Below, one piece after another: positions 26,201 to 29,353 of a DNA stretch of 36,078 nucleotides. The notes below the pieces were generated by a model. That model did no database searches. It had not been told where the DNA came from and worked only from the letters and a program-made list of their open reading frames with translations. This stretch comes from Cyanobacteria bacterium SW_9_44_58. GTDB lineage: Bacteria; Cyanobacteriota; Cyanobacteriia; Cyanobacteriales; Rubidibacteraceae. The position numbers and the translations under genes were made by a program. Location of the stretch: the NCBI GenBank assembly GCA_003021905.1, contig PXPI01000120.1, positions 1 to 36,078 of the forward strand. Reading direction: 5' to 3'. Each line of letters starts with the position of its first letter. Position 1 is the stretch's first letter.

Positions 26201-27679
26201 ATGTCACGACGAACCCCAAAACTGTGGTATCACCAAGGAACGCTATTACTCCATCCGCCGCCGCAGGGCAAGGCTTGGATTGATTTTGCCGCTTGGGACG
26301 ATCGCGTGGAGAAGTTTCGTATCCCTGCCATTTATTATCGCGCCTTGGTAGAAGCGTTACAAGCTGAAGAAATTGATTTCATTGACGAGGCAAAGGAATT
26401 TTACGCTTTGGCATTGAATTCCCGTTTTGAGATGACGCCCTATCCCCATCAGGCAGAGGCGCTGCAACAGTGGAAAGAAGCAGGAAGACAAGGTATTGTT
26501 GTTTTGCCCACCGCAGCGGGAAAAACCTATTTAGCCCAGTTGGCAATGGAAGCCACCCCGCGCACGACATTAATTGTGGTTCCCACCTTAGACTTGATGC
26601 ATCAGTGGTACGCGCAACTGGAAGCTGCCTTTCCCGATATCGATTTGGGCTTGTTAGGCGGCGGTTCCCATGATCGCAGCGAGATTCTGGTGGCAACTTA
26701 CAACAGTGCTGCGATTTATGCCGAAGCAATCGGCCATCGCTATGCCTTATTAATTTTTGATGAATGTCATCATTTGCCCACAGACTTTTCCCGAGTGATT
26801 GCCGAATACGCGATCGCGCCCTATCGTTTAGGACTCACTGCAACGCCGGAACGGTCCGATGGCAACGAACGAGACTTAGAAGCCCTCATTGGTTCCATTA
26901 TCTATCGCAAAAGCCCCAATGAGTTATCCGGGGATGCTTTAGCCCATTATAAAACGGTGGAAATTAAAGTGAAATTATCCCCAAAAGAGAAACAACAGTA
27001 TCAAGAGGCAATTGCAACGCGGAATCAATTTTTGAAAGAGAAACGGATTTCCTTGAAAGACTTAAAAGGCTGGCAATTGTTTGTCAAAGAAAGCGCGCGA
27101 TCGCAACAAGGCAGACGTGCCATGTTAGCCCATCGTCAAGCCAAAGAAATTGCCCTGGGAACCGAAAGTAAACTGCGAGTGTTAACTGAATTAATCACCA
27201 AACATTCCCCAGAACCGATTTTGGTTTTCACCAATGACAATGCCACGGTTTATCGCATTTCCCAAGACTTTTTAATTCCGGCCATTACGCACCAAACCCC
27301 CGTAAAAGAACGCCATGCCATTTTGCAAAAATTCAAAACGGGGGAATATAAAACCTTAGTTGCTTCTCATGTTTTGAACGAAGGGGTTGATGTTCCCGAT
27401 GCCAGGATTGCCATTATTTTATCAGGAACGGGGTCTGCTCGGGAATATGTGCAACGCTTAGGTCGCGTCTTAAGAAAAGGGAAAAGCAATAATAAACAAG
27501 CCATTCTCTATGAGGTAATTGCCGAAGAAACCAGCGAAGAACGCACTTCCCAACGCAGACGGGTCAAATCGGACAAAAAAGAACATCAACTCGATGTTTT
27601 TTCATCAAACAACAATCAATCTACTTCCCTTCCCAAAGCGGCGGAAAAAGGAGGAGACTATACCGTTGAGGAAGAATAA
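26201..27679 (+). CDS. XPB/Rad25-like DEAD/DEAH helicase
   Basis: A 492-residue superfamily 2 helicase. The N-terminal 90 residues (YHQGTLLLHPPPQGKAWIDF, IPAIYYRALV) form a damage-recognition-like domain found in XPB relatives. Then come the Q-motif region YPHQAEALQQW, Walker A VLPTAAGKT, motif Ib VVPTLDLMHQWY, DECH box (FDECHHLPT), motif III LTATPERSDG and, in domain 2, LVFTNDNATVYR, SHVLNEGVDVPDARIAI and VQRLGRVLRKGK (motif VI). The C-terminus is basic. A role in DNA repair or transcription-linked repair is inferred. In archaea this helicase partners the Bax1 nuclease (DUF790), and I recall adjacency in cyanobacteria; no such gene follows here. Confidence 0.9.
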   Translation: MSRRTPKLWYHQGTLLLHPPPQGKAWIDFAAWDDRVEKFRIPAIYYRALVEALQAEEIDFIDEAKEFYALALNSRFEMTPYPHQAEALQQWKEAGRQGIVVLPTAAGKTYLAQLAMEATPRTTLIVVPTLDLMHQWYAQLEAAFPDIDLGLLGGGSHDRSEILVATYNSAAIYAEAIGHRYALLIFDECHHLPTDFSRVIAEYAIAPYRLGLTATPERSDGNERDLEALIGSIIYRKSPNELSGDALAHYKTVEIKVKLSPKEKQQYQEAIATRNQFLKEKRISLKDLKGWQLFVKESARSQQGRRAMLAHRQAKEIALGTESKLRVLTELITKHSPEPILVFTNDNATVYRISQDFLIPAITHQTPVKERHAILQKFKTGEYKTLVASHVLNEGVDVPDARIAIILSGTGSAREYVQRLGRVLRKGKSNNKQAILYEVIAEETSEERTSQRRRVKSDKKEHQLDVFSSNNNQSTSLPKAAEKGGDYTVEEE

Positions 27680-27735
27680 TAATTCTAATTCATGTTTTTG
27701 ATGAGTTAAATAGAAAGCGATCGCGCGCTAAACCC

Positions 27736-27829
27736 TTAATCGGTTGAATCAAGAATTCTTTTTAGGTATTGCGATATTAAACGCCATCATTAATCAGTTA
27801 AATCAAGGATTTTTTTTAGGTATAACAAT
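27736..27829 (+). repeat. Two-copy imperfect direct repeat, 54-base spacing
   Basis: 27736-27775 and 27790-27829 match at about 33 of 40 positions (TTAATC, GTT, AATCAAG, ATT, then T-rich, AGGTAT). The spacing is 54 bases. They lie in the non-coding stretch after the helicase gene and encode nothing visible. The T-runs in each copy followed by AGGTAT could be degenerate terminators. The origin is unknown. Confidence 0.5.
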
Positions 27830-27865
27830 CTAAATTATTATGACGTTAATAATAAAAACTATTAT

Positions 27866-27987
27866 TATAGCAATTCTCACTCTAATGAGATACGCTCTGA
27901 ACTGAACCAATTAAGTAATTAAATTTTGTCATAAGCCTTAATCAGTCAATGTTGCTACTGTAGCTCGTGAGTCCAAGAACTGCTATA
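27866..27987. mobile_element. 122-bp MITE with IS630-like terminal inverted repeats
   Basis: The left end is TATAGCAATTCTCACTC and the right end, read inverted, is TATAGCAGTTCTTGGACTC; the first 13 bases match except for two transitions. It has no coding capacity. The left end matches the IS630-type end at 35982 almost throughout (TATAGCAATTCTC, ATGAG, then a base, then TAC), so the MITE probably moves with that transposase. Flanking TA is consistent with the TA target of IS630/Tc1-type elements. Confidence 0.65.
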
Positions 27988-28040
27988 AATCAAACTCAAG
28001 GTAAAATAAAATGAAGCGTCAAAAAAACACTATGCTGTCA

Positions 28041-28320
28041 GCACCTCTTCCTTGAAGGAAGAGGCTTCGTGCTTCTTTCTTCAGTAGCTGACCCGCCTAA
28101 GTCCTACGAGGACTACGTTTAGGGGAAGTTGTTAAAGTCCTACCTTGGGATTGTTGCCAGTCCCAAGCTCTAGAAGTTCTAGCTTAAACATCTGTAAAAA
28201 GAGGTAAGGAAGTAGTTAGAGCAAAGTACCGCCCTTAAACATTGGCTAGGCTAACGTCACTCGTGCAGGAAGTTTCCCGTTATTGGGAAGTTTGGAAAGG
28301 AACTGCACCTCTTCCTTTCC
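28041..28320 (+). ncRNA. Structured RNA locus, probable HEARO / IscB omega-RNA without its nuclease gene
   Basis: This non-coding segment is dense in inverted repeats: CCTCTTCCTT/AAGGAAGAGG (28044-28064); GTCCTACGAGGAC flanked by CCTAA and TTTAGG; CTTGGGA/TCCCAAG; CTAGA/TCTAG; TTCCC/GGGAA; and a perfect 9-bp GGAAAGGAA/TTCCTTTCC (28294-28302 and 28312-28320). The order CTGACCCGCC, GTCCTACGAGGAC, GTTTAGGGGAAG, GTAAGGAAGTAGTTAGAGC, CAAAGTACCGCCC matches my memory of the HEARO RNA that accompanies IscB (RRXRR/HNH) nucleases in cyanobacteria. No IscB ORF follows; a sugar kinase starts 52 bases later. The identity is a recalled match, not a search result; the structure is visible directly. Confidence 0.55.
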
Positions 28321-28348
28321 TCTTAAATAAATTATTCCGGAGTGAACG

Positions 28349-28366
28349 ACGGGGTTTTAGACCCGT
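28349..28366 (+). mobile_element. Terminal-type hairpin closing the HEARO-like element
   Basis: ACGGG and CCCGT (28349-28353 and 28362-28366) form a 5-bp stem with loop GTTTTAGA, just before GATTAA and the ATGATG of the sugar kinase. IS200/IS605-type elements end with such a subterminal hairpin, so this may be the element's 3' end. The exact boundary is uncertain. Confidence 0.35.
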
Positions 28367-28372
28367 GATTAA

Positions 28373-29353
28373 ATGATGACACAAGTGCTTTGTTTAGGGG
28401 AAATTTTATATGATTGTTTAGCCCAAGAAACCGGGAAAGCCATCAACGAAGTCAACCATTGGACAGCCTATCCTGGGGGGGCACCGGCCAATGTTGCCAC
28501 AGCTTTAGTGAAACTGGGAACCTCTGCCGGGTTTATTGGCTGTATTGGTCAAGATGAAGCAGGAGAGGCGCTCAAACAGCTATTATCAGAAACCGGGGTC
28601 AACTGTGAAGGCATCCAAGAACATCCCACCGCCCCCACGCGACAAGTGTATGTTTTACGGTCTCCTGAGGGCGATCGCGAATTCGCAGGCTTTGGCGATC
28701 TTCCCCCGGATCAGTTTGCCGATGCCTTTCTCAATGCCGATCAACTCCCGATTCCGTTATTTGAACAGGCCCAATTTTTAGTTATCGGCACCTTAGAACT
28801 TGCCTATCCCACCACCCGCAAAGCCGTTTTTCGCGCCCTCAATTTAGCCAATACCTATAACTTAAAAGTCTTAGTGGATGTCAACTGGCGACCTATGTTT
28901 TGGCCGGATCCCGAGGCTGCCATTCCCCTAATTAAGCAATTGTGGCAGTTTGTGGATTTTGTCAAATTATCCCGTGAGGAAGCCCAATGGTTGTTTCAGA
29001 CAGGAGAATCGGGCGCGATCGCGCATCAACTCAGCTCAGTGGAAGGCGTTTTTGTTACCGATGGCGAGGGAACCATCAGCTATCATTTAAACGATTTTGA
29101 AGGCAAAATTTCTGCTTTTCAAGTGTCAGTTGAAGATACCACCGGGGCTGGCGACAGTTTTGTGGCTGGGTTAGTGCATCAGCTGTGTCAACAGGGGTTA
29201 ACTCATTTAGACAATGCCAAAACGGTTCAAGAAATTGTTATCTATGCTTGTGCGGTCGGGGCGTTGAGTACGACCAAACCAGGTGCGATTTCTGCGCAGC
29301 CAACGGCGAATGAAGTTGAACAATTTTTAAATCAAACAACTTCCTCAATTTAA
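28373..29353 (+). CDS. PfkB-family carbohydrate kinase, probably fructokinase
   Basis: A 326-residue ribokinase-fold enzyme. Substrate-side motifs are GEILYDCLAQ and PGGAPANVATALVKLG; the anion hole and catalytic Asp lie in DTTGAGDSFVAGLVHQL (Asp within GAGD); NWRPMFWPD is typical of fructokinases. It phosphorylates fructose or a related sugar with ATP in the cytoplasm. Two in-frame ATGs (28373, 28376) begin the gene; neither has a ribosome binding site, because GTGATTAA and the end of the HEARO-like element lie directly upstream. The insertion may have replaced its original promoter and leader. The coding region is intact. Confidence 0.9.
   Translation: MMTQVLCLGEILYDCLAQETGKAINEVNHWTAYPGGAPANVATALVKLGTSAGFIGCIGQDEAGEALKQLLSETGVNCEGIQEHPTAPTRQVYVLRSPEGDREFAGFGDLPPDQFADAFLNADQLPIPLFEQAQFLVIGTLELAYPTTRKAVFRALNLANTYNLKVLVDVNWRPMFWPDPEAAIPLIKQLWQFVDFVKLSREEAQWLFQTGESGAIAHQLSSVEGVFVTDGEGTISYHLNDFEGKISAFQVSVEDTTGAGDSFVAGLVHQLCQQGLTHLDNAKTVQEIVIYACAVGALSTTKPGAISAQPTANEVEQFLNQTTSSI

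What the first reader, a model, noticed from the sequence alone, without database searches (positions are those of the whole stretch)
28041..28372. Orphan HEARO / IscB omega-RNA directly before a sugar-kinase start codon
A dense array of stem-loops matches the order I recall for HEARO RNAs, which are IscB guide RNAs. There is no IscB gene downstream, so it may be a stand-alone RNA that could be served in trans by IscB elsewhere. HEARO elements are reported to insert next to ATGA/GTGA; here the element abuts GTGATTAAATGATG at the kinase start. It would now be the leader of that gene.
Basis: partly seen in the sequence, partly recalled or inferred. Interest (0 to 1): 0.75.

Follow-up and report, generated by a model that had tools for sequence, protein, structure and literature searches.

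The report
Start-codon-homing orphan guide-RNA element
A small mobile element that carries a guide RNA of the Cas9-ancestor kind, but no nuclease gene, sits exactly in front of a sugar-kinase start codon in a cyanobacterium, and its relatives share an extra RNA pseudoknot and sometimes stay on as permanent gene leaders.

Summary
No iscB follows. The one RRXRR gene found elsewhere in the genome is of the HNH-less IsrB kind.

One detail was wrong: GTGATT lies inside the element. Sister elements put the end at 28375; the ATGA target is the kinase's own start codon, kept in four element-free congeners. Orphans are ordinary here: 70 of 126 judgeable copies.

New here: between omega-RNA and right end lies an H-type pseudoknot (28263-28320). 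In 65 sequences outside the model, 15 of 16 pairs change on both sides. It is in 25 of 70 orphans and 0 of 56 iscB-bearing loci. ATGA/GTGA-ended orphans abut long open frames at 23 of 44 junctions, against 164 of 1057 flank sites. In five species of one genus, pseudoknot and right end persist before a padR-like gene while the omega-RNA decayed.

Best reading: a non-autonomous IS200/IS605-like element whose 3' part is now the kinase leader.

The parts
28021..28036 (+). putative guide (16 nt directly 5' of the omega-RNA scaffold; length assumed from recalled IscB biology)
   Evidence: position relative to the HEARO match. With a following NTGA, no other site with fewer than 3 mismatches in this genome
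28037..28260 (+). HEARO / omega-RNA scaffold
   Evidence: RF02033, 127.9 bits, full length
28263..28320 (+). H-type pseudoknot: S1 28263-28268 with 28303-28308, S2 28294-28302 with 28312-28320, linker CTC 28309-28311
   Evidence: model R1, 60.8 bits at 28258-28321; covariation in independent set
28321..28375 (+). right end of the element, with hairpin 28349-28366 (ACGGG..CCCGT)
   Evidence: shared with L072, L064, L065; pattern found 22 times in five congeneric genomes
28376..28379 (+). ATGA at the junction, native start codon of the kinase
   Evidence: congeners G001, G002, G003, G005 start with ATGACACA at this point
28373..29353 (+). PfkB-family sugar kinase (element-borne ATG at 28373, native ATG at 28376)
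   Evidence: ORF; PF00294 E 1.5e-53
26201..27679 (+). helicase gene, marker of synteny for the element-free alleles
   Evidence: 84-85% identical upstream of the kinase in L034, L035, L036

Best explanation
28037-28375 is a non-autonomous mobile element of the IscB (ISC, IS200/IS605-like) kind: an omega-RNA without its nuclease gene, a pseudoknot found only in one set of orphans, and a right end. It sits before ATGA, here the native start codon of a PfkB kinase. Shown: the omega-RNA match, no nuclease in cis, the pseudoknot by covariation, the shared right end, the ATGA boundary, element-free alleles in congeners. Inferred: a Y1 transposase acting in trans moved it; the kinase is now read from the element's right end (its own ATG at 28373 or the native one); the pseudoknot and right end act as part of the mRNA leader, for example by shielding the mRNA or keeping the start region open, which lets such insertions persist at start codons. 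The omega-RNA itself is probably stranded here, because its likely partner, an HNH-bearing IscB, was not found.
For: HEARO match; sister elements with the same right end before other genes; empty alleles with synteny in G001, G003, G005 and a matching kinase start in G002; only an IsrB-like gene in the genome; 8 Y1 transposase matches, 6 above the cut-off; pseudoknot covariation and restriction to orphans; start-codon enrichment 23/44 against 164/1057; padR-like leader kept in five species while the omega-RNA decayed; 18 of 66 pseudoknot loci with enough upstream sequence have no detectable HEARO.
Against: No transcript or expression data. No good Shine-Dalgarno was seen before 28373/28376, and only 15 of 44 junctions have one. 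The left flank has diverged, so base-exact insertion is not proved. In a second set of orthologous leaders (g41, four species) the omega-RNA is intact and the pseudoknot no better kept (0.86 against 0.93). Two orphan families, 15 of 70 copies, do not end at ATGA/GTGA, and one of them (6 copies) carries the pseudoknot. The start-codon control is not matched for intergenic position. Own-genome hits to the guide pattern are 7 (itself included) against 0 on the reversed control.
Confidence: 0.72

Rival explanations
1. Plain transposon relic: the omega-RNA and pseudoknot serve only the element (the pseudoknot caps the 3' end of a stand-alone omega-RNA so that it lasts in trans), and the kinase merely tolerates the insertion.
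For: The pseudoknot directly follows the scaffold in most cases (48 of 69 loci scanned have a HEARO next to it) and is absent where iscB follows (0 of 56). Stand-alone omega-RNAs working with IscB are reported (PMC9581776, passage).
Against: In g5 the pseudoknot and right end are kept while the omega-RNA has decayed; 18 of 66 pseudoknot loci lack a detectable HEARO.
Confidence: 0.35
2. Live guide RNA in trans: the RNA is served today by the genome's IsrB-like protein and nicks the re-joined target.
For: IsrB prefers an NTGA TAM and cuts ATGA sites (PMC9581776, passages); the junction is ATGA; an IsrB-like gene is present; the scaffold is largely intact.
Against: The two RNAs found next to IsrB-like genes in the genus score only 32-43 bits with the HEARO model (L185, L070), those next to IscB 68-167, this one 127.9. 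The IsrB gene's start is cut off by a contig end.
Confidence: 0.12
3. The pseudoknot is a DNA signal: a folded single strand at the right end, used by the transposase rather than the RNA.
For: IS200/IS605 ends are read as single-stranded hairpins (recalled); the module sits near the right end.
Against: Absent from 56 iscB-bearing loci, which need ends too; G-U cells are frequent on this strand (11, 9 and 8 of 58 sequences at three pairs); it lies about 50 or 90 nt from the junction.
Confidence: 0.12

Closest known systems
HEARO RNA (Rfam RF02033), the omega-RNA of IscB
   Same: Full-length covariance match well above the curated cut-off; ATGA flank at the 3' end of the element
   Different: No nuclease gene in cis; followed by a pseudoknot that is absent from iscB-bearing copies
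Stand-alone omega-RNAs reported for IscB (named in PMC9581776, citing the 2021 OMEGA paper, which I could not read)
   Same: Omega-RNA far from any nuclease gene
   Different: Here inside a defined small element with a right end, a pseudoknot and a start-codon junction; no IscB found in the genome
IsrB and its omega-RNA of about 300 nt (PMC9581776)
   Same: NTGA TAM fits the ATGA junction; an IsrB-like gene is in this genome
   Different: RNAs next to IsrB-like genes in this genus score far lower with HEARO; the pseudoknot here lies 3' of the scaffold, unlike the adaptor and nexus pseudoknots described inside the IsrB RNA
MITEs and other non-autonomous ends of IS200/IS605 elements (recalled)
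   Same: Element ends kept, transposase absent, moved in trans
   Different: Carries a structured guide RNA and is enriched before start codons

Membership tests
HEARO RNA (RF02033) | Score above the curated gathering cut-off over the full model | tested here: met
   127.9 bits against 83, positions 1-211 of 211
HEARO RNA (RF02033) | Element flanked 3' by ATGA or GTGA (recalled from the 2009 description) | tested here: met
   ATGA at 28376-28379; 44 of 47 resolved ends in relatives are ATGA/GTGA, partly circular; 15 copies of two other families are not
HEARO RNA (RF02033) | Nuclease ORF downstream (usual, not obligatory) | tested here: not met
   PfkB kinase follows
IscB OMEGA system | IscB with RuvC and HNH in the genome | tested here: not met
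   One RRXRR gene, no HNH match; the assembly is in 136 contigs and the gene is cut
IscB OMEGA system | RNA-guided cutting with this RNA | not testable with these tools
   needs biochemistry
IS200/IS605-like non-autonomous element | Defined ends shared with sister copies at other loci | tested here: met
   L072 81% identical over 354 nt, L064 and L065 in part; right-end pattern 22 hits
IS200/IS605-like non-autonomous element | Empty site in relatives | tested here: inconclusive
   Element-free kinase loci with synteny in three congeners, but the left flank is too diverged for a base-exact site
IS200/IS605-like non-autonomous element | Transposase available in trans | tested here: inconclusive
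   8 Y1 matches in the genome; none tied to this right end
Kinase leader | Transcript spans element and kinase | not testable with these tools
   no RNA data; promoter scan at chance level, no terminator found

The most novel reading that the evidence does not exclude
Cyanobacteria carry a mobile 5' leader: a lineage of guide-RNA transposons that dropped the nuclease, gained a pseudoknot, lands before ATGA start codons and is repeatedly domesticated, the guide RNA decaying while pseudoknot and right end stay under selection as the gene's translation-start leader.
Probability: 0.36. Interest if true: 0.78.

Novelty: new variant of a known kind. Interest (0 to 1): 0.55.

Why it matters
It would show how RNA-guided elements on the line to Cas9 can outlive their nuclease by becoming harmless or useful leaders at start codons, and it adds a pseudoknot, well supported by covariation, that marks one class of stand-alone omega-RNAs. 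Both points can be tested with reporters and RNA mapping in laboratory cyanobacteria.

Tried and rejected
GTGATT as target: rejected, conserved inside the right end. Second target of the guide: with a following NTGA, 6 own-genome sites besides the locus itself, all with 3 mismatches, none listed with fewer; G001 has one site with 2 mismatches. Other Rfam families in 27700-28600: only a microRNA family at E 4.7. Terminator: none; promoters at chance level, 2 found against 2.0. Phage and plasmid records at blastn sensitivity: no match. Five own-genome right-end hits with 3 mismatches (L295, L297, L299, L301, L303) open on no frame of 100 codons and may be unrelated IS ends. A Shine-Dalgarno supplied by the right end: not general, 15 of 44.

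Limits of the counts. Four fetched loci (L027, L028, L029, L032) were left out. 'Orphan' means no tblastn match to nine RRXRR proteins within 1500 nt; 5 of the 75 without a match have under 100 nt downstream and cannot be judged, so I use 70 of 126. A1 was assembled from sequences seen to have the pseudoknot, so its 95.9% pairing is selected; 20 of the 25 orphan hits built the model. A3 was gathered with a model of S2 plus sequence, so S1 in A3 is the cleanest test. Of 98 pseudoknot hits I read 89; one, L256, has an IsrB-like gene about 130 nt downstream. 69 pseudoknot loci were scanned with Rfam; 48 have a HEARO next to them, 3 of the rest are cut by a contig end, 18 have none. Several junction patterns contain ATGA/GTGA and are circular for those rows; one search located ends by alignment alone. 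8 of 55 ends were not resolved. The control takes sites on both strands of flanking DNA, genes included.

Full report
Observation. The window holds one Rfam match at the curated threshold: HEARO (RF02033) at 28037-28260, plus strand, 127.9 bits against a cut-off of 83, whole model. It is the only HEARO found in the genome of the window (2.94 Mb, 136 contigs, 99.7% complete).

Orphan status. A PfkB-family kinase follows, not a nuclease. The genome has one RRXRR gene, on C31 at 1-990, cut by the contig start. It matches RRXRR but no HNH model; L097 and L106 likewise. It is 78-83% identical to L097, L106 and L098 (G004, G003, G005), 46% to L096 (G001), and about 22-33% to HNH-bearing IscBs over short stretches. 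It is IsrB-like. The two RNAs that the HEARO model finds next to IsrB-like genes in the genus score 43 and 32 bits (L070, L185); those next to IscBs score 113-167 (L005, L016, L068, L077) or 68-75 (L030, L066, L183). At 127.9 bits the window RNA looks IscB-type, and no IscB was found in this assembly.

Boundaries. L072 (G001) is 81% identical over 354 nt, omega-RNA to right end; L064, L065 and L069 match in part. Right ends align as GTGATTAAATG|ATGACAC (window), GTGATTTAAGG|ATGACAA (L072), GTGATATAAGG|ATGAGCA (L064), TTTTTAATG|ATGACAA (L065). So GTGATT is element sequence and the element ends at 28375. ATGA at 28376 is the native start: G001, G002, G003 and G005 begin the kinase with ATGACACA and have no HEARO there. 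In G001, G003 and G005 the same helicase gene lies upstream (84-85%). The left flank is too diverged to show a base-exact empty site. Translation may start at the element's ATG (28373) or the native one.

How common. HEARO is found in 32 of 60 genomes searched, this one included, 26 above the cut-off. Of 131 copies read, 56 have a cis RRXRR gene; 70 of the other 75 have enough downstream sequence to be called orphans. Orphans are thus ordinary here, and stand-alone omega-RNAs that work with IscB are already reported (PMC9581776, passages seen).

A pseudoknot after the omega-RNA. Two or three bases after the HEARO match ends, a set of orphans has an H-type pseudoknot: S1 (GTGCAG/CTGCAC in the window), a loop with a small hairpin, and S2 (GGAAAGGAA/TTCCTTTCC), S1's second strand joined directly to S2, then CTC. 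A strict detector finds it in 18 of 70 orphans, 0 of 56 iscB-bearing copies and 14 of 2520 shuffles. A model of S2 plus sequence (R1) finds it in 25 of 70 orphan loci, one weakly, and 0 of 56 iscB-bearing loci. In the order it occurs in 27 of 195 genomes, 98 matches; in a phylum sample, in 15 of 386, all of this order. On 65 sequences that did not build the model (58 distinct), 94.5% of cells pair, 15 of 16 pairs have changes on both sides, 0 of 500 shuffles reach the observed value on any measure, and slid versions pair at 31-54%. S1, which the model did not contain as pairs, has two-sided changes at 6 of 6 pairs. Frequent G-U cells place the structure on the omega-RNA strand. No Rfam family covers it.

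Place. Two orphan families, 15 of 70 copies, do not end at ATGA/GTGA; one of them, six copies, carries the pseudoknot. Of the other 55, 47 ends were resolved: 36 ATGA, 8 GTGA, 3 other. At 23 of these 44 junctions a frame of 100 or more codons begins, against 164 of 1057 ATGA/GTGA sites in flanking DNA. Judged by eye from the first residues (recall, no database call), genes at or close behind such ends include metH, gatC, dnaN, argG, rubredoxin, thioredoxin and CP12. The right end also occurs without pseudoknot or HEARO: at 11 of 20 right-end sites read in five congeneric genomes a frame of 100 or more codons starts at the junction, among them this element and a solo end at C113:22337 of this genome.

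Persistence. In five species of one genus (g5) a padR-like gene has pseudoknot and right end before its start while HEARO is no longer recognised in the loci scanned. Fraction of invariant columns: upstream 0.47, pseudoknot 0.71, right end 0.88, gene 0.88; the paired strands hardly change, the first loop does. Of 66 pseudoknot loci with enough upstream sequence, 18 lack a detectable HEARO. Against this, in the g41 leader (four species) upstream, pseudoknot, right end and gene give 0.93, 0.86, 0.85, 0.95.

Mechanism. Shown: omega-RNA, pseudoknot, right end, ATGA boundary, element-free alleles. Inferred: a Y1 transposase in trans (8 matches in the genome, 6 above cut-off) moved it; where an IscB is present it would recut the resealed site (left flank plus ATGA; IsrB's NTGA TAM fits, PMC9581776) and so keep a copy; at a start codon the right end becomes the new start region and cannot be lost except by exact excision, so it stays while the omega-RNA decays. 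Whether the pseudoknot helps the mRNA, the omega-RNA or transposition is open; the padR case favours the mRNA.

Literature. Eight paper searches were answered. In the listings and abstracts I saw none on HEARO or IscB orphans as start-codon leaders or on a 3' pseudoknot; one search listed 40 of 55. I saw passages only of PMC9581776 and PMC9755519. The papers of 2009, 2016 and 2021 are not held, so absence from print is not established.

Noticed in passing
L003:1-1060 (G000 C31): IsrB-like gene cut by the contig start; its right end (..CAGCACGAAAATAG) abuts ATGAAACAG, the start of a 491-codon frame, so this element too sits before a start codon.
   Followed up: partly
L287 (G000 C113:22337-22358): Right end without HEARO in front of a 291-codon frame, in the same genome.
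   Followed up: partly
L137 and L151; L149 and L215-L217, L220, L265; L026 and L213: The same kind of gene (rubredoxin-like, padR-like, CP12-like; names from recall) lies behind orphan elements in genomes of different families: repeated targeting, old shared insertions or selection.
   Followed up: partly
L074, L076, L078, L080, L082, L084, L086, L087, L186 and L069, L075, L079, L081, L083, L085: Two orphan families in G001 and G003 whose conserved ends (..GTTAACCC and ..GCAGCAG) are not followed by ATGA/GTGA as a rule; perhaps another target motif.
   Followed up: no
window 28041-28053 and 28305-28317: An exact 13-nt repeat, GCACCTCTTCCTT, in the first omega-RNA hairpin and again in the pseudoknot.
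   Followed up: no
window 27736-27780 and 27790-27834: 45-nt direct repeat, 80% identical, in the left flank.
   Followed up: no
L228:1211-1278 (minus strand): Glutamine riboswitch match, 58.5 bits, near a pseudoknot leader in G001.
   Followed up: no
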